Shown piece after piece: positions 11,768 through 63,900 of a stretch of DNA of 64,000 bases (positions are counted from its first letter, which is position 1; each line of letters opens with the position of its first letter). Under the pieces are notes generated by a model, which worked only from the letters and a program-made list of their open reading frames with translations, was not told the DNA's origin and did not search any database. Source of the DNA: Solirubrobacterales bacterium (GTDB taxonomy: Bacteria > Actinomycetota > Thermoleophilia > Solirubrobacterales > 70-9); assembly GCA_020438355.1 (NCBI GenBank), contig JAGQUT010000002.1:1-64000 (forward strand), written 5' to 3'. The translations under genes and the position numbers were made by a program.

Positions 11768-11850
11768 AGTCGGCGAGCTTCGCTTCGCTCGCCCCGCCTC
11801 CAGGCTCAACCCGCCCCACCCATCCGCATCAAGGAATGTTTGGGTGGGGC
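11768..11850. repeat. Dispersed structured repeat, copy 1
   Basis: The box AGTCGGCGAGCTTCGC is at 11768-11783. Its GGCGAGC pairs with GCTCGCC at 11787-11793. Next come CCGCCTCCAGGCTCAACCCG and a 10-bp hairpin, GCCCCACCCA (11813) with TGGGTGGGGC (11841). The same order of box, spacer and hairpin occurs at 33021, where the hairpin stem has changed on both sides. The element lies between divergent rpsA and the flavoprotein gene. Confidence 0.8.
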
Positions 11851-11903
11851 TCGGTGGAAGCACCTCGGGCTTGGCCTTCGATGCTTCCAGACCGGCTCTT
11901 CAT

Positions 11904-22401: not shown

Positions 22402-24584
22402 CAGAAAGCGGCCAGACCCCAGCCCCAGACCACCTTGTCGATGCGGTCCCGGATCACCTTGTTGCGGCGCGCGGCGGGGCCCGTCGTCACGGTGTCCCGG
22501 CGGCCGTTCTTCGAGTCGAGAATGTTGATGCCCTCACGGCCCAGGAGCGAAGACTTGCCCTGCTGCGCCCGGTGACGCTTGCCGAGGATCAGCCAGTCGG
22601 CATGGGGGCTGCCTTCGAGCCGTTCGATGGTTGGCGCGAAACGCGTACGAGAAGCACAGTTGCCGTTCATCCACTCGACGTATCCCTTCCCGAGGTCAGC
22701 CTTCACGCCCCGTGGGGAACCGGCAAAGACTGCGCTGTCGTTGCCTGGCCCGCCGTCCGCGAAAGAACCGGAGCAGGGGGCGAGAATGTGGGCGTGGTCG
22801 GTGCCCTCTCCACCGTGCACCTCGACCCTGTCGTTCACGTAGATCAGGTCGTTGTTGCCCCCGCCGAACATCACGCTGCCGGCACTTCCGTAGCTGGTCG
22901 AGATGAAGTCCTTGCTGGGTCCGCCCCGGATCTCGTTGCGACCGGTCCCGCCGTTCAGGGTCGTCGACAGGTTCTTCGGGATCGAACTGGCCAGCCGGAT
23001 CTCGTCGGCTCCTTCGTCGCCGTAGACCAGCATGCCGTCGAGATTGTTCTTGTCAGCAGGGCAGTCGATGATCTCGGGGAGGTTCTCGTTGGCATCCGTC
23101 CCGGCCGCTCTGCATTGACCGGAGGGGACTCCCCCGCCCGCGACCTTGACGCGGAAAGTCTGGCTTCCGACGCTGTAGCTGATCGTCACCTGGTCCCCGG
23201 CAGCTCCCCCCATCACGACGGGGAAGCCACCTTCGTTGATGTCGACCAGGGTGCGCTGCCGGCCATAGTTGCCCGGCGAGTCCCCGTTGCACCGGCTGGA
23301 TTTCGAAAGGCCGGAACAGTCGTTGTTTCCAAGTCCGCCGTCGCCGGTGTCGTCGTCGCGGCCGTTGCCGATGATCAGGTCATCTCCGAGACCGCCCTGG
23401 ATCTCGTTGTTGACACCGGGTGCAGCAGTGATCTCATCGTCGAAAGCCGAACCGATCACGTTTTCAAGCGAAGCGAGCTGATAGCGAGTGGTGCCGAGTG
23501 AGGTTCCGGCCGCAAGGTCAATGATCACGCCGTCTATCCGGCGCCCTCCGGGCGGCGTGTGAGCTGCGTAGGAGATCGTGTCGCGCCCCGCCCCGCCGTT
23601 CACCCGGGCAAGGCCCCTGCCGGTGGTGACGAAGAGGTCATCGCCGTTGTTTCCGTAGAGCTTCTTGATCCCGGAGTGGGTGATGATCGTGTCGTCCCGG
23701 GGCGTCCCCCACGCCCAGTCGTCGCCTTCGCCACCGTCCAGGTATGCCGGTCCGTTGTTGTTTGGCCGGTCAGCCCTGAGTCGGTCGTTGCCCTGCTCCC
23801 CGAAGAGTTTCTCCCTGACGCCGCCAGCCGTCACGCCGCCATTCGAGAAAAGGAAGTCGGTGCCGTTTCCGCCGTGGATTTCCGAGACGGCGTTGCCGAG
23901 ACTGTGGATCTGATCGGAGCCGGTCAACCCGTAAAGACGATTGCCGATTCCGGAGTAGTCGAAGATCCGGTCGTTGCCACCCTTGCCGAAGATAATGTCC
24001 CGATCCGCAACTCCCCGTGGATTCCGGGTCGGGCTGGCGTAGATACGGTCGTGACTCTTTGATCCCTTGACGGTGTCGTTGCCGAGCCCGGCGTAGACCA
24101 CTCCCCTGGTTGTGTTCGAGTGCAGGGTTATCCGGTCATTTCCGGGGCCGCCTTCGATTCTTACGCTGTTTCCGCGGCCGGTTCTGATCCGGTCGTTTCC
24201 CTCATCCCCGTAGACCCTGAGCTTGTTCCCTTTCTCGGTCTGAATCCGGTCGTTGCCCGGTCCACCGTAGACGGTGGCGTCGCCCTTTTCGGCGTAGATG
24301 CGATCGTTGCCCGGCCCCGCGCTGGTGAACGAGATTCCCTTGCCAGCCCTGATCGTTTGTGAGCCTTCCCAGGCGCAAATCCGGCTGAAGGGCTTGCCGA
24401 TGACCGTGATGCGGTCACCAGCGACCCAGGTCACGTCCCTGAACTTGAGGCGAACTGTCTTGTTCTGGCCGGTGACGACCCGATTTATCTTCTTGCCGAA
24501 GCATTTCGAAGGCCGGGCATCTGCCGTGCCGACGGAGGCCGCGAACAGCACCAATGCCAGCAGGCCGATACAGATCGCCAGCAC
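22401..24584 (-). CDS. Secreted RTX-like repeat protein B
   Basis: A probable exported calcium-binding protein of about 727 aa. A hydrophobic signal segment (IGLLALVLFAASVGTADA) leads to a conserved module SKCFGKKINRVVTGQNK. Many RTX-type GGxGxD nonapeptide repeats follow (GGPGNDRI and similar, in tandem). A non-repeat insert at about 440-530 has SPGN, GGFPVVMG and GMLVYGDEG. The end reads VWGWGLAAF. The start is uncertain. GTG 24584 avoids overlap but gives an uncharged signal n-region, CTG 24626 would give a better signal, and ATG 24731 would overlap the upstream paralogue by 116 nt. It is a tandem paralogue of the gene ending at 24616. Confidence 0.78.
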   Translation of the reverse strand: MLAICIGLLALVLFAASVGTADARPSKCFGKKINRVVTGQNKTVRLKFRDVTWVAGDRITVIGKPFSRICAWEGSQTIRAGKGISFTSAGPGNDRIYAEKGDATVYGGPGNDRIQTEKGNKLRVYGDEGNDRIRTGRGNSVRIEGGPGNDRITLHSNTTRGVVYAGLGNDTVKGSKSHDRIYASPTRNPRGVADRDIIFGKGGNDRIFDYSGIGNRLYGLTGSDQIHSLGNAVSEIHGGNGTDFLFSNGGVTAGGVREKLFGEQGNDRLRADRPNNNGPAYLDGGEGDDWAWGTPRDDTIITHSGIKKLYGNNGDDLFVTTGRGLARVNGGAGRDTISYAAHTPPGGRRIDGVIIDLAAGTSLGTTRYQLASLENVIGSAFDDEITAAPGVNNEIQGGLGDDLIIGNGRDDDTGDGGLGNNDCSGLSKSSRCNGDSPGNYGRQRTLVDINEGGFPVVMGGAAGDQVTISYSVGSQTFRVKVAGGGVPSGQCRAAGTDANENLPEIIDCPADKNNLDGMLVYGDEGADEIRLASSIPKNLSTTLNGGTGRNEIRGGPSKDFISTSYGSAGSVMFGGGNNDLIYVNDRVEVHGGEGTDHAHILAPCSGSFADGGPGNDSAVFAGSPRGVKADLGKGYVEWMNGNCASRTRFAPTIERLEGSPHADWLILGKRHRAQQGKSSLLGREGINILDSKNGRRDTVTTGPAARRNKVIRDRIDKVVWGWGLAAF

Positions 24585-24615: not shown

Positions 24616-26751
24616 CTAGTAGCCAGCGAGACCGTAACCCCAGGTGATCTTGTCGATCTTGTCGGCGATGACCTTGTTCTTTCGCCCGCCAGCACCGGTC
24701 GTGATCGTATCGGCGGAACCGTTGCGGGCATCGAAGGTGTCGATACCGCCCCGGCCGAACAGGACGCTCCGCCCTTGTTGGGCGGAGCTGCGGCGACCGA
24801 CGATCAACCAGTCGTTCATCTCGCTGCCCTCAAGCTTCTCTATGTCCTTTCCGATTGCGGTCCGTGATCCCCCGCATCCGCCGTCCCGCCACTCCGCGTA
24901 GCCACCCGCCAGACTCGCCTTGACTCCTCTCTCTGCGCCGGCGAAAACGACACCGTCCGTTCCGTTACCCCCCCTCAGGGTCGCTCCGAGGCACGGATCC
25001 ACCACTCGGAAGACGTCGGTGTCCGCACCGCCATTGATCGAAACCTGGTCAACCGCATAGAGGACGTCCAGGCCAACACCCCCGTTGATCGTACTTCCGG
25101 CACTGCCGGGCGCGGTCGAAATGAAGTCCTTGCTCGGCCCTCCGTTTATGAGGTTGGCACCGGCTCCACCATTCACCGTCGTGGTCATCGTCCTCGGCAG
25201 CGAAGACTCGAGATCAATCGTGTCGTTCCCGTCGTCACCGTAGACGAGCATGCCGTTCAGGTTGTTGGGATCAACCGGGCAGCTGATCTCCTGTCCGACG
25301 TCGTCGCAAAGCCCGGAGGGCAGCGAATCACCTGATACGTCGACCATGAAGTTGCCGGTGGACCCGGAGTAGCCAATCGAGATCCCGTCGGCTGACTCGC
25401 TGCCCATCACGATCAGCAAGCCGCCGTCGGTTATGTCGACCTGAGTCTGGCTCACCCTCGAGTTGCCCGGGGAATCCTGATTGCAGTTGATCAACTGGCC
25501 ACCGGAGCACTCGTTCTCGCCAAGACCGCCATCGACGGTGTCAGTGTCCTGCCCTTCGATCACGTCGTCTCCGAGGCCGCCTTCAATCTCGTTCGCCACG
25601 CCCTGGGCGCCAACGATCTCGTCGTCGAAGGCTGAACCGATCACGTTCTCAATCCCGTTGAGGTCGTAGCCGGAGAATCCGAGTGAGGTTCCCTCTTCCA
25701 GGTCAACCTTCACTCCGCTGATCGAGCCCGGGCGTTCCGAGGGGGTGTGAGCGGCGAACGAGATCGTGTCACGACCGTCGCCACCTTCGAACGTTCCCTG
25801 GCCACGCCCACTGGTCACGAAGAGATCGTCACCTCCGTATCCCCAGAACTTCTTGATCCCTGAATTGTTGATAATCGTGTCGCCCTGCGAAGTGCCGTGA
25901 ACCTGGTCGTCACCTTCGCCGCCGTCGAGATACGCGGGACCGAAGCTGCCGGGCTGATTAGCGAAGAGGCGGTCGTTGCCCTGCTCCCCGAAGAGTTTCT
26001 CGAGCACGCCGTCAGCTGTCCTGCCCCCGTTGGAGTAGAGAAAGTCCGAGCCGTTGCCGCCGTGAAGCTCCGAGACTGCGCGCCCGAGGCTGTAGAACTT
26101 GTCCGAACCGTTTTGTCCGTACATCCGGTTGGCGGTTCCACCGTAGTCGTACATCTGGTCGTTGCCGCCACCGCCGACCATGCGATCGGAATCTCCGGGG
26201 CCGGCCGCAGCGTTGACCGGAGATCCGTAGATGAAGTCATGGCCGTTCGAGCCAATGATCTCGTCGTCGCCGAGTCCGCCGTAAGCCTTGTTGTTATTGC
26301 TCTTGGGATGGAGAACGATCCTGTCGTCCCCGGATCCGGTATCGGTGAAAGAGGTTCCCTTGCCGGCGAAGACGATCTGGCGGCCATCATCTGCGCAGAT
26401 CCGGCTGTATGGCTTGCCGACCACGGTGACCTTGTTTCCGGCGATCCAGGCGACATCCTTGAAGTCGAGTTCGACTTTCTTGTTGTTCCCCTTGATCACG
26501 GTGTTGACCTTCTTGCCGAAACACTTCGAGGGCGCCGAACGGGCCTGACCAGGCAGAATCATCAGGCCCAGAGCGACAAACGCCAGCAAGATTGATGCTT
26601 GCACCATGGTGAACCGATGGCCTGCCACGGGTGTAGCGACACTCGGTCTGGGATGTTCGGGAGCGGAATTCATCGAGTCGGTGGACGGGACGGCCGGGAC
26701 GATAGTGCTGGAACTCGCCTTAACAACACGCTTCAAGGCCGAAAGATTCAC
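24616..26751 (-). CDS. Secreted RTX-like repeat protein A
   Basis: A 711-aa paralogue of the downstream gene with the same plan. After a polar N-terminus of about 48 residues comes a signal helix ILLAFVALGLMILPGQARS, then SKCFGKKVNTVIKGNNK. RTX-like GGxGxD repeats follow (YGGLGDDEI, GGAGANLI and others), then the same non-repeat insert (SPGN, GGLLIVMG, GMLVYGDDG) and a WGYGLAGY end. The GTG at 26751 has AGGGAG 10 nt upstream; ATG 26673 and ATG 26607 are alternatives. RTX repeats bind Ca2+ outside the cell, but no protease, lipase or other catalytic domain is visible. The two genes share an exact 32-nt stretch (25970-26001 and 23782-23813). Confidence 0.82.
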   Translation of the reverse strand: MNLSALKRVVKASSSTIVPAVPSTDSMNSAPEHPRPSVATPVAGHRFTMVQASILLAFVALGLMILPGQARSAPSKCFGKKVNTVIKGNNKKVELDFKDVAWIAGNKVTVVGKPYSRICADDGRQIVFAGKGTSFTDTGSGDDRIVLHPKSNNNKAYGGLGDDEIIGSNGHDFIYGSPVNAAAGPGDSDRMVGGGGNDQMYDYGGTANRMYGQNGSDKFYSLGRAVSELHGGNGSDFLYSNGGRTADGVLEKLFGEQGNDRLFANQPGSFGPAYLDGGEGDDQVHGTSQGDTIINNSGIKKFWGYGGDDLFVTSGRGQGTFEGGDGRDTISFAAHTPSERPGSISGVKVDLEEGTSLGFSGYDLNGIENVIGSAFDDEIVGAQGVANEIEGGLGDDVIEGQDTDTVDGGLGENECSGGQLINCNQDSPGNSRVSQTQVDITDGGLLIVMGSESADGISIGYSGSTGNFMVDVSGDSLPSGLCDDVGQEISCPVDPNNLNGMLVYGDDGNDTIDLESSLPRTMTTTVNGGAGANLINGGPSKDFISTAPGSAGSTINGGVGLDVLYAVDQVSINGGADTDVFRVVDPCLGATLRGGNGTDGVVFAGAERGVKASLAGGYAEWRDGGCGGSRTAIGKDIEKLEGSEMNDWLIVGRRSSAQQGRSVLFGRGGIDTFDARNGSADTITTGAGGRKNKVIADKIDKITWGYGLAGY

Positions 26752-31724: not shown

Positions 31725-32954
31725 TTACTGACCGGACTGGGTCTGAGCGGCCTGTTCGGTTGTCGCGTCAGGGCGCTCACCGAGTGTGACCGTGACTTCG
31801 CGGGTTTCGCCGTCTCTCATTACCTCGAGGTTGATCTCCTCGCCGACCTCCGAGTCATTGATTATCCGGATCAGGTCTTCCATCGAGCCAAGCTCTTCTC
31901 CATTGGCCTTGACGATGATGTCGCCGCCGGTCAGGACCTGCTGACCACCAACCGTGACCGGCTCATCGCCAGCCTTGATTCCGGCCTCGGCTGCGGGGCC
32001 ATCCTCCGGGGCTTCCTGAACGATCACGCCGGTATCGGTGCCAAGGTTCAGTGCATCGGAAAGCTGACCGCTGATCGTCGCGCCGCTGATCCCGAGGTAG
32101 GCATGCTTGACCTCACCGGTTTCGAGCAGCTGGTCGACAACATCCTTGACGGTGTTGGAAGGCACGGCGAAGCCGATACCGACGTTTCCGTTGCTGGTGC
32201 CGCCGGTCGCGATCTGGGAGTTGACTCCGATCACCTGGCCGTCGGTGTTGATCAGCGGCCCACCCGAGTTGCCCGGGTTGATCGCCGCGTCGGTCTGGAT
32301 CACGTTCGAGATTGCGTACTGGTTGAGGCTTGAGATCTCTCGCTGCAGCGCGGAGACGATGCCTGTTGTCACAGTGCGGTCAAGCCCGAACGGATTTCCG
32401 ATCGCGACGACTGGGTCACCGACCTTGACGTCGGTCGAGTCGGCAAGCCGGAGTGGCTTCATTGCACTTTCGGGTGCGTCCACCTTGATCAGGGCGAGGT
32501 CGGTCGAGGGGTCGGTGCCCACAACTTCGGCTTCGTAAACCTCATCCGAGTCCCCGAGGGTGACCGTAATGTCCTCGGCTCCCTCGATCACGTGATTGTT
32601 CGTGACCATGTGCCCTTCGGCGTCGATCAGGAAGCCGGAACCGGTCGCCGTTCCCTGCTGGGACTGTCCGTAGGGGTCAAACGGATTGCTCGATCCCGAT
32701 GAGATGCCGGAGGCCGTAATGAAGCCGACGCCGTCACCGTCCCGTTCATAGATCTGGTTGACGAGGTTCTGGTCGTTTGTGTTGGAGGCTGGCGCCGTGG
32801 TGGCCGTTATGGACTGGACGGTGGTCTCGTCCTTGCCTATCCAGCCGGCCGCGATTGCGGCGTAGCCAGCTATGGCGACGACGAGACCACCCATGAGGGC
32901 AGCCACGAAAACGGAGCGCAGCGAGCGCTTATGGGAATTGGATGCGTCATTCAT
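31725..32954 (-). CDS. HtrA/DegP-like membrane-anchored serine protease
   Basis: An envelope quality-control protease of 409 aa. The N-terminus has one membrane anchor at about 15-38 (VFVAALMGGLVVAIAGYAAIAAGW), then a Ser/Thr/Asn-rich linker. The trypsin-like domain has His in VTNNHVIEG, Asp in STDLALIKV and Ser in NPGNSGGPL, so the triad is complete. One PDZ domain (about 300-390) includes the LGIS carboxylate loop region. It is encoded between trpC and trpF with its own terminator, apparently interrupting a tryptophan cluster. A stem enclosing its start codon is described separately. Confidence 0.93.
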   Translation of the reverse strand: MNDASNSHKRSLRSVFVAALMGGLVVAIAGYAAIAAGWIGKDETTVQSITATTAPASNTNDQNLVNQIYERDGDGVGFITASGISSGSSNPFDPYGQSQQGTATGSGFLIDAEGHMVTNNHVIEGAEDITVTLGDSDEVYEAEVVGTDPSTDLALIKVDAPESAMKPLRLADSTDVKVGDPVVAIGNPFGLDRTVTTGIVSALQREISSLNQYAISNVIQTDAAINPGNSGGPLINTDGQVIGVNSQIATGGTSNGNVGIGFAVPSNTVKDVVDQLLETGEVKHAYLGISGATISGQLSDALNLGTDTGVIVQEAPEDGPAAEAGIKAGDEPVTVGGQQVLTGGDIIVKANGEELGSMEDLIRIINDSEVGEEINLEVMRDGETREVTVTLGERPDATTEQAAQTQSGQ

Positions 32955-32979
32955 GACGGGTATCCAAATCCACCGTCAT
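32953..32979 (-). promoter_or_regulatory. Stem enclosing the htrA start codon
   Basis: ATGACGG and CCGTCAT form a perfect 7-bp stem with a 13-nt loop. The htrA start ATG lies at its edge. It might mask initiation or act as a DNA operator; the data do not separate these. Confidence 0.35.
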
Positions 32980-32995
32980 TGACAGTTCCTAAGCC

Positions 32996-33012
32996 AGAAA
33001 ACAAGGTTTTCT
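32996..33012. promoter_or_regulatory. AT-rich palindrome upstream of htrA
   Basis: AGAAAACAAGGTTTTCT has 7-bp perfect arms and stands out in GC-rich surroundings. It lies about 45 bp before the htrA start. A regulator site for htrA is plausible. Confidence 0.4.
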
Positions 33013-33020
33013 AAATCAGT

Positions 33021-33260
33021 AGTCGGCGAGCTTCGCTCCGCCTCCAAGCTCAACCCGCCGGCCCACAAGACAATGAATGGATGGGCCGGCTCCATCAGGC
33101 GCAGCCCGGACTGAGGACGCCCAGACAACCGTGGGGGCGGGTGGCCCTTCCAAAGTGGCTTCCGATTACTGCTCCGGTCAGCGAGCGACTGGGTACAAGC
33201 GCGACGGGTGGGCCATCTTTGGGAGGGCTGCCCGCCTCCACGGGGCGAAGCTCGCCGACT
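33021..33260. repeat. 240-nt structured intergenic element (dispersed repeat copy 2; possible small RNA)
   Basis: It fills most of the gene-free stretch 32955-33264. It is closed by perfect 16-bp inverted ends, AGTCGGCGAGCTTCGC (33021-33036) and its complement (33245-33260). Inside are a 9-bp hairpin, GCCGGCCCA/TGGGCCGGC at 33057-33090, and a long hairpin whose arms 33131-33159 and 33212-33241 make 29 pairs with one bulge. All four non-Watson-Crick positions in the long stem are G-U on the plus-strand RNA and would be A-C on the minus strand. This suggests a plus-strand RNA, antisense to the flanking genes. No credible ORF, ribosome site or target-site duplication was found. A non-autonomous mobile element is the alternative. 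Confidence 0.75.
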
Positions 33261-33264
33261 GTGG

Positions 33265-34071
33265 TTAAGGAAGGAAGTGTTCGGTGGTGCTGTCGGAGGT
33301 GCCCGCGAGGGTTCGGACCATTTCCTCGGGGTCTTCCGATCGCATAAGGGACTCGCCGATCAGGGCCGCGTCGACACCGACTCTTTCGAGTTCGACCAGC
33401 TCTTCCCGGTTGGAGATGCCCGACTCCGAAACGACCGTGGTGCCGGTCGGAACGTCGGTGATCAGGTCGTAGGTGGTCTGGATGTCGACCACACCTGTGT
33501 CGAGATTCCGGTTGTTGATGCCGATCACCTCGGCTCCGGATTCAACGGCGAGGTCCAGTTCCCGCTCGTCATGAACTTCGACCAGGCAATCAAGGTCGAG
33601 CTGGGCGGCCTTGAGCTGGAACTCGCGGAGGCGCTCGTCGTGAAGCACGGCGACGATAAGCAGGACCGCGTCGGCGCCCCCGACCGCAGCCTCGTACAGC
33701 TGGTACTCGTCGACTACGAAATCCTTCCGGATAATCGGCAGGCTGCATGCGGCCCGGGCGGCGGCAAGGTCATCGAGCCGTCCGTCGAAGTGGGTCTCGT
33801 CGGTAAGCACCGAGAGTGCGGCAGCACCGCCAGCCTCATAGGCCTTCACCTGGTCGGCCAGCTCGACACCGGGAGCGATCTCTCCGGCGCTCGGTGACTT
33901 GCGCTTGTATTCGCAGATCAGCGACATGCCCGGGCGGGTGAGGGCCTCCCGGAAGGGACGGTCCTGGTCGCGCTCGCCAAGCCTGGCCTCCAGGTCTGCG
34001 AGCGGCACCTGCCGGCTTCGGGCTTTGACGCCCTGGCTGGCGGCCGAGATCAGTTGCTCAAGAATCCCCAC
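33265..34071 (-). CDS. trpC: Indole-3-glycerol phosphate synthase
   Basis: TrpC closes the indole ring in tryptophan synthesis. It is a 268-aa TIM barrel with the family signature CEYKRKSPSAG (about 51-61), catalytic Lys in IIRKDFVVDEYQ, EVHDERELDLA, GINNRNLDT and SESGISNREELV. The start is GTG at 34071, 17 nt after the trpD stop. It is the last gene of the first trp transcript, and the structured 240-nt element begins 4 nt past its stop. Confidence 0.97.
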   Translation of the reverse strand: MGILEQLISAASQGVKARSRQVPLADLEARLGERDQDRPFREALTRPGMSLICEYKRKSPSAGEIAPGVELADQVKAYEAGGAAALSVLTDETHFDGRLDDLAAARAACSLPIIRKDFVVDEYQLYEAAVGGADAVLLIVAVLHDERLREFQLKAAQLDLDCLVEVHDERELDLAVESGAEVIGINNRNLDTGVVDIQTTYDLITDVPTGTTVVSESGISNREELVELERVGVDAALIGESLMRSEDPEEMVRTLAGTSDSTTEHFLP

Positions 34072-38309: not shown

Positions 38310-38347
38310 AAGAAGCCATGGTGAGACAGCAGACGGAGCCGGCCAGT

Positions 38348-38362
38348 CGAAGCTCGCCGACT
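38348..38362. repeat. Dispersed 15-mer box, isolated copy
   Basis: CGAAGCTCGCCGACT, the exact complement of the box that ends the 33021-33260 element, lies here between era and the lipoprotein gene. In this copy it is embedded in CAGTCG...CGACTG arms that can form their own hairpin. Confidence 0.7.
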
Positions 38363-63816: not shown

Positions 63817-63850
63817 GCCGGCCCGACCATTCATGGTGATGCGGGCCGGC
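63817..63850. repeat. Dispersed hairpin, copy 3
   Basis: GCCGGCCCG and CGGGCCGGC (9 bp, perfect) enclose the 16-nt loop ACCATTCATGGTGATG. On the opposite strand the hairpin at 33057-33090 has the same length and matches 12 of 16 loop bases, including CCATTCAT, and its ninth stem pair changes A-T to G-C. The 15-mer box is not found next to this copy. Confidence 0.65.
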
Positions 63851-63900
63851 GGGACTCTGCTCCGACCCGAGCCGGACCAACCGGTGTCAAAGCTATTGGA

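What the first reader, a model, noticed from the sequence alone, without database searches (positions are those of the whole stretch)
33021..33260. A 240-nt closed, three-stem element in the only large gene-free gap
Seen directly: perfect 16-nt inverted ends, a 9-bp hairpin, and a second hairpin of 29 pairs with one bulge (33131-33159 with 33212-33241). Together they fold as a three-way junction. The four imperfect positions of the long stem are all G-U on the plus-strand RNA, whereas the complementary RNA would have A-C mismatches. That bias is what selection on a plus-strand RNA would leave. It is antisense to trpC and htrA and separates the two halves of the trp locus. It matches no RNA family I know (not tmRNA, RNase P, SRP or 6S by visible motifs). 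A MITE-like element with terminal inverted repeats is the main alternative.
Basis: partly seen in the sequence, partly recalled or inferred. Interest (0 to 1): 0.82.

Follow-up and report, generated by a model that had tools for sequence, protein, structure and literature searches.

The report
Mosaic of REP-like intergenic hairpin repeats
The 240-base element is not a single RNA gene but a patchwork of two kinds of folded repeat that are scattered through the genomes of a small group of uncultured actinobacteria, mostly just after the ends of genes; one of the two kinds has an unusual fixed core on a freely changing stem and matches no known RNA family.

Summary
Unit A (33021-33095) is a ~75-nt two-hairpin repeat. 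A covariance model finds 64 places at E<1e-3 in this 2.6-Mb genome. Its core pattern occurs in 70 stretches among 85,000 species genomes, all Solirubrobacterales/Actinomycetota MAGs. Its second stem covaries strongly: 6 of 9 pairs changed on both sides, 99.5% paired. It sits right after stop codons (66 of 86 within 15 nt; 26.6 expected) and seems to carry its own TAA box. Unit B (33126-33248) is a ~30-bp covarying stem around an invariant core (GGCTTCCGATTACT...CGCGACGG), kept in a fifth species with unrelated stem sequences; its plus strand is predicted more stable in 20 of 22 copies. The 16-nt inverted ends are two opposed unit-A 5' ends; other A+B composites lack the closing arm, so the three-way junction is not conserved. 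Ten congeners have a compact trpC-htrA gap; five others carry different insertions. No RAYT or reverse transcriptase was found in carriers. Best reading: RAYT-less, REP-like mosaic elements, mostly at gene 3' ends. Most novel reading not excluded: unit B is a new multicopy structured RNA.

The parts
33021..33095 (+). Unit A: two-hairpin repeat (AGTC tag, hairpin 1, CTCC-N6-AACCC linker, hairpin 2, TCC tail)
   Evidence: CM R1 hit 33021-33095, 91.8 bits; alignment A2
33025..33037 (+). hairpin 1 of unit A (GGCGA-GCT-TCGCT, last pair G-U)
   Evidence: sequence; 98.3% of cells paired in 24 copies; replaced by many unrelated hairpins in relatives
33057..33090 (+). hairpin 2 of unit A (GCCGGCCCA...TGGGCCGGC), the covarying core of the family
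   Evidence: 6 of 9 pairs with changes on both sides, 99.5% paired
33096..33125 (+). linker between units A and B
   Evidence: A followed by B recurs in L002, L061, L063, L072 and L020
33126..33248 (+). Unit B: long variable stem around the invariant core GGCTTCCGATTACT...CGCGACGG (core pattern 33157-33207)
   Evidence: CM R2 hit 33126-33248, 129.8 bits; core pattern match; 14 of 31 stem pairs change on both sides; core kept with unrelated stems in G001
33241..33260 (-). truncated 5' end of a second, inverted unit A (AGTCGGCGAGCTTCGCCCCG), 4 nt after the trpC stop codon; supplies the right 16-nt arm
   Evidence: sequence; partial minus-strand CM hit 33220-33260
33265..34071 (-). trpC (upstream gene on the minus strand), stop codon TAA at 33265-33267
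   Evidence: ORF list and gene calls; 69-91% identical full-length orthologues in the genus
31725..32954 (-). htrA-like serine protease gene (downstream gene)

Best explanation
The element is a mosaic of two short, non-coding, dispersed repeats. SHOWN: unit A is a ~75-nt two-hairpin repeat of tens of copies per genome; its stem pairing is conserved while its sequence is exchanged; it is abundant in one genus only; it lies mostly within 15 nt downstream of a stop codon and often has a TAA box of its own; it occurs as singlets and inverted doublets. SHOWN: unit B is a separate repeat whose stem covaries around an invariant core and whose plus strand folds better. SHOWN: the window's 16-nt inverted ends are two opposed unit-A 5' ends. 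INFERRED: both units spread as non-autonomous elements recognised as folded single strands (as REP/BIME elements are) by an enzyme not yet identified, helped by exchange between copies, and they are kept preferentially at gene 3' ends because damage there is small. INFERRED: where they lie on the sense strand of a message they act as 3'-untranslated hairpins that can slow terminating ribosomes or exonucleases, as E. coli REPs within 15 nt of a stop codon are reported to do. At this locus unit A is antisense to both neighbours, so any effect on trpC would come from the complementary strand, which also folds stably.
For: Copy number and dispersal. Genus restriction; 70 of 70 core-pattern stretches in Solirubrobacterales/Actinomycetota MAGs and none in viral contigs. 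Covariation; hairpin swapping. Stop-codon adjacency. TAA box of the element: present in 11 of 27 copies whose left neighbour does not end there, against about 2% background, and located after the host stop codon in L086 and L158. Compact trpC-htrA spacers in ten congeners and different insertions in five others. Inverted doublets (L078/L091, L084, L174, L177, L191). Absence of a RAYT. REP placement downstream of ORFs, CGTC-class REPs lacking a transposase, and termini supplying stop codons: PMC3733652. REPs within 15 nt of a stop codon stall ribosomes: PMC12306157, citing earlier work.
Against: No mobilising enzyme was identified and no insertion was observed directly. No target-site duplication was found, and 3' boundaries are fuzzy. 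Many elements occupy orthologous sites in several species, which suggests retention as much as mobility; that comparison is biased because most relatives' loci were fetched for having the core. The two-hairpin architecture and the invariant core of unit B are not standard REP features. No expression data exist, so the 3'-UTR effect is untested.
Confidence: 0.66

Rival explanations
1. Unit B is a new multicopy structured RNA (a functional ncRNA or protein-binding RNA) that happens to be carried in the same intergenic mosaics; unit A is an unrelated REP-like repeat.
For: The invariant core GGCTTCCGATTACT...CGCGACGG is kept while both stem arms change completely between G001 and the other species. 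A small internal hairpin also seems to change in a compensatory way (GCTC/GAGC to CTTCG/CGAAG; read, not counted). Plus strand more stable in 20 of 22 copies. Present in G001, which has no unit A at the model threshold. No Rfam match.
Against: Copies lie next to assorted housekeeping genes and sit preferentially between convergent genes, as repeats do. No promoter-like sequence was found in the region. A folded DNA strand recognised by a protein would leave the same marks, including G-T bias.
Confidence: 0.3
2. The whole 240 nt is one plus-strand three-way-junction RNA.
For: It folds as described with z = -7.75, and the long stem has only G-U imperfections on the plus strand.
Against: The closing helix is absent in the five other A+B composites checked. 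Units A and B mostly occur apart. Unit A shows no plus-strand bias. The trpC-htrA gap of relatives is empty or filled otherwise.
Confidence: 0.05
3. A classical MITE mobilised by a DDE transposase through its terminal inverted repeats.
For: Perfect 16-nt inverted ends here; dispersed, with presence/absence between species.
Against: Single copies have the end sequence only at the 5' side. No target-site duplication at the trpC-htrA site or at the other sites compared. The stems covary instead of sharing one ancestral sequence.
Confidence: 0.08
4. Lineage-specific transcription terminators or processing signals of the upstream genes.
For: Directly downstream of stop codons, strong GC hairpins, retained at orthologous genes with changed sequence.
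Against: No T-run follows the hairpins. Some copies are followed by a separate GC-rich hairpin with a T-run (for example L064 and L130, seen in the sequences). Only a small share of genes has one, and half of the genus lacks the family.
Confidence: 0.15

Closest known systems
CGTC-tagged REPs (repetitive extragenic palindromes; PMC3733652)
   Same: NGTC tag before a short GC-rich hairpin (AGTC, CGTC, TGTC, GGTC here), many copies, inverted dimers, no dedicated transposase, placement within about 20 bp downstream of ORFs
   Different: Two hairpins with a fixed (A)AACCC linker instead of one 20-40 bp palindrome; stems rarely begin with AT; tail TCC rather than CCA; ~75 nt; found in an actinobacterial genus, and that paper does not mention Actinobacteria
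GTAG REPs / REPINs with RAYT transposases
   Same: Dispersed palindromes, inverted doublets, end-of-gene location, termini that can supply a stop codon
   Different: No GTAG tag and no Y1 transposase (RAYT) in ten genus genomes searched
BOX / RUP / SPRITE repeats of Streptococcus pneumoniae (PMC3049150)
   Same: Modular, stem-forming, intergenic, enriched between convergent genes, SPRITE close to gene 3' ends
   Different: [quoted passage not shown] BOX and RUP have terminal inverted repeats and target duplications; no sequence relation was tested
MITEs
   Same: Short, non-autonomous, dispersed
   Different: Terminal inverted repeats on single copies and target-site duplications not found

Membership tests
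REP with RAYT (GTAG class) | RAYT / Y1 transposase gene in the genome | tested here: not met
   PF01797: no match in G000 or in 9 other genus genomes; the control rings in 5 of 14 known genomes. The genomes are incomplete.
REP with RAYT (GTAG class) | GTAG (GTRG) tetranucleotide at the hairpin base | tested here: not met
   The tag is NGTC
CGTC-class REP | unpaired CGTC (or TGTC/CCTC) tag at one end | tested here: inconclusive
   AGTC in most copies, CGTC or TGTC in some; in the latter the GTC seems to pair within the stem
CGTC-class REP | stem starting with AT pairs, tail CCA, single 20-40 bp palindrome | tested here: not met
   Most stems start with GG; tail TCC; a second hairpin is part of the unit
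REP-like behaviour in general | high copy number, intergenic, downstream of ORFs, dimers in inverted orientation | tested here: met
   64 places at E<1e-3; 66 of 86 within 15 nt of a stop codon; inverted doublets
MITE | terminal inverted repeats on each copy | tested here: not met
   The end sequence is at the 5' side only in single copies
MITE | target-site duplication | tested here: inconclusive
   None seen at trpC-htrA or at other compared sites, but few clean empty sites
Known RNA families (Rfam 15) | covariance-model score above the gathering cut-off | tested here: not met
   Only a tRNA in the window; no hit in L061, L063, L199
Retroelement (group II intron or retron derived) | reverse transcriptase in carrier genomes | tested here: not met
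   PF00078 only in G003, which has neither unit at the thresholds used

The most novel reading that the evidence does not exclude
Unit B is a previously undescribed class of multicopy structured RNA (or folded single-stranded DNA) element: a stem of about 30 base pairs that is free to change sequence around an invariant asymmetric core (GGCTTCCGATTACT-hairpin-CGCGACGG), carried in several copies per genome in a genus of uncultured Solirubrobacterales and working on its plus strand.
Probability: 0.3. Interest if true: 0.68.

Novelty: new variant of a known kind. Interest (0 to 1): 0.5.

Why it matters
REP-type elements are best known from Proteobacteria, and the class without a dedicated transposase has no known mover. 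This is a REP-like family in an actinobacterial lineage with a fixed two-hairpin plan, stems that are exchanged while pairing is kept, and many copies at the same gene ends in different species. It gives a clean natural data set for asking how transposase-less palindromic repeats spread and what they do after stop codons. Unit B is a specific candidate for a new structured nucleic acid with a testable invariant core.

Tried and rejected
Rfam, gathering and permissive thresholds: no family. Y1 transposase/RAYT and reverse transcriptase in the genus: none in carriers. Viral origin: no match to either core in IMG/VR. A plus-strand bias for unit A seemed likely from the 24 own-genome copies but vanished with 134 copies (9:9) and was dropped; the complement of unit A is even predicted more stable in 113 of 134 copies, which I do not interpret because the copies are related. 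A closed three-way junction: rejected by the other A+B composites. Association of unit B with a particular gene: neighbours are unrelated housekeeping genes. Canonical promoter or terminator: no promoter-like site; two weak terminator-like minus-strand matches, one of them overlapping hairpin 2. The orthologous-site comparison is biased towards occupied sites because the loci were selected for the core; its 'empty' label also includes diverged remnants, so its ratio is not used.

Full report
The observation. The plus strand folds to -141.9 kcal/mol, z = -7.75 against dinucleotide shuffles; the complement also folds unusually well, z = -5.62. The element fills the gap between trpC (stop codon 33265-33267, minus strand) and an htrA-like gene (start 32954, minus strand). 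No Rfam family matches.

It is a dispersed repeat. A DNA search of the own genome (2.62 Mb, 133 contigs) gives 41 matches, most to positions 1-75 of the element and a few to positions 110-225. The element therefore has two parts, called unit A (33021-33095) and unit B (33126-33248), which mostly occur apart; A followed by B in the same orientation recurs in L002, L061, L063, L072 and L020.

Unit A. The unit reads tag-hairpin 1-CTCC-N6-AACCC-hairpin 2-TCCG. In 24 own-genome copies hairpin 2 is 99.5% paired, and 6 of its 9 pairs have changes on both sides (26 cells in the whole structure against 4.8 in shuffles, 0 of 500 shuffles as high; sliding the partner by one column drops pairing to about 50%). 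A covariance model of unit A finds 77 places in the own genome at E up to 1, of which 64 have E below 1e-3, some of them truncated. Among 100 relatives the family is abundant only in congeners G006, G009, G010, G011, G012, G013 and G015, with single weak hits elsewhere. A gapped pattern for the hairpin-2 core, scanned over 85,000 bacterial and archaeal species genomes, matched 70 stretches, all in Solirubrobacterales MAGs (one MAG is titled only Actinomycetota) such as 67-14, HKST-UBA63 and SSF62; none in viral contigs. In relatives hairpin 1 is often a different hairpin (for example GGGCGGGGTCCGACCCGCCC or GTCATCCGGTCTTCGCCGGATGAC) while the linker and hairpin 2 keep their plan; 60 distinct hairpin-1 strings and about 30 hairpin-2 arm types occur among 134 copies.

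Position. Genes were called with a simple codon-usage caller of my own. Of 115 copies with neighbours on both sides, 86 have the left neighbour ending towards the element, and in 66 of these the tag begins within 15 nt of the stop codon; uniform placement within the same gaps would give 26.6 (0 of 20,000 simulations as high). The upstream box (C/A)TTAA(CTGCA) or ATAAG(T/C)A seems to belong to the element: TAA lies within 12 nt of the tag in 11 of 27 copies whose left neighbour does not end there, against about 2% of intergenic background, and it follows the host's own stop codon in L086 and L158. The window's unit A is in the minority orientation: it is antisense to trpC and htrA. Several intergenic regions hold two inverted copies.

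Evolution. Many copies sit at orthologous places in two to five species, with both flanking genes orthologous, yet with different hairpin-1 and hairpin-2 sequences, for example the set L046/L125/L162 and the set L101/L133/L183. This fits exchange between copies or repeated insertion at the same place with pairing maintained. The comparison is biased towards occupied sites because the relatives' loci were fetched for the core. At the window locus, ten congeners (G002-G005, G007, G008, G013, G014, G016, G017) have a compact trpC-htrA spacer with a conserved motif upstream of htrA (TTTAG-AA-CCTT...CTTAG), whereas G006, G009, G010, G011 and G012 carry other palindromic repeats there. No target-site duplication was evident.

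Unit B. Seventeen copies from four species form a 31-pair stem, 95.9% paired, with 14 pairs changed on both sides (shuffle mean 4.6, 0 of 500 as high) around an invariant core. A model of unit B also finds G001, a congener without unit A at the model threshold. Its five copies keep GGCTTCCGATTACT...CGCGACGG (with small changes) while both stem arms are unrelated to those of the other species. The core pattern was absent from the other genera among 399 genomes of the class and from viral contigs. Weaker model hits in G009, G010 and at the G012 trpC-htrA site share the outer stem (TAGCCGTGGGG...CCCCACGGCGTA) with a different centre. On the plus strand there are 25 G-U against 5 A-C cells, and the plus strand is predicted more stable in 20 of 22 copies (mean 8.1 kcal/mol). 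Copies lie mostly between convergent genes or downstream of a gene on the other strand; the 20 neighbouring proteins scanned are unrelated housekeeping types.

Correction of the three-way junction and of the strand argument. The right-hand 16-nt arm is the 5' end of a truncated unit A on the minus strand, starting 4 nt after the trpC stop codon. In the five other A+B composites checked the longest complementary run between the A 5' end and the 3' flank of B is 5-7 bases, against 16 here. The closing helix is therefore a consequence of two opposed repeats, not a conserved part. The G-U argument holds for unit B but not for unit A (9 G-T and 9 A-C in 134 copies).

Mechanism. The features match REP/BIME-type elements: palindromes in many copies, inverted doublets, placement just after ORFs, and ends that can supply a stop codon; the CGTC-tagged class has no dedicated transposase (PMC3733652). 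REPs within 15 nt of a stop codon are reported to stall ribosomes (PMC12306157, citing earlier work). I infer that units A and B spread as folded single strands with the help of an unidentified enzyme and act, where transcribed in sense, as 3'-UTR hairpins. RAYT and reverse transcriptase were not found in carriers. Steps shown: repeat nature, covariation, position, genus restriction, presence/absence at the locus. Steps inferred: mobility, the enzyme, any effect on messages.

Membership and novelty. It works like a REP but is not a member of the RAYT-linked GTAG class (tag and enzyme tested, not met), and it meets the CGTC-class definition only in part. Unit B is not a standard REP. I therefore file the finding as a new variant of a known kind, with a 0.3 chance that unit B is a new structured RNA class.

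Noticed in passing
window 11768-11855 (+): Another unit A copy with a longer hairpin 1 (GGCGAGCTTCGCTTCGCTCGCC) and a different hairpin-2 stem; its orthologous site in G013 (L065) is also occupied, with different hairpins.
   Followed up: partly
window 38333-38362 (-) and 63817-63853 (-): Truncated remnants of unit A (5' end only, E = 0.014; hairpin-2 part only, E = 3.5e-4).
   Followed up: no
window ~32962-33012: Upstream of htrA a motif TTTAGaaAACCTT followed by CGGCTTAG or similar is conserved across about 15 species of the genus, probably the htrA promoter or operator; it survives all the insertions.
   Followed up: partly
L210, L211, L226 (trpC-htrA gap of G009, G010, G012): A palindromic frame TAGCCGTGGGGTCGGGT...ACCCGACCCCACGGCGTA like the outer stem of unit B encloses a different centre, as if the frame were a module that accepts different inner hairpins.
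   Followed up: partly
L021/L084 (G000), L211, L212: A further repeat around GCTTCGCTCCCCATCCAGAGGT (inverted GGATGGGGAGCGAAGC) occurs in several species; these genomes seem to hold many families of intergenic palindromes.
   Followed up: no
L134, L161, L185: At a tRNA gene (anticodon region TTTTGGT) the element sits directly after the tRNA 3' end in two species and is absent in a third; the site shares a GGTGTACCTC-like tail, so a deletion cannot be excluded.
   Followed up: partly
window 23373-23853 and 25558-26041: Two stretches 71% identical, about 2.2 kb apart, probably tandem paralogous genes.
   Followed up: no
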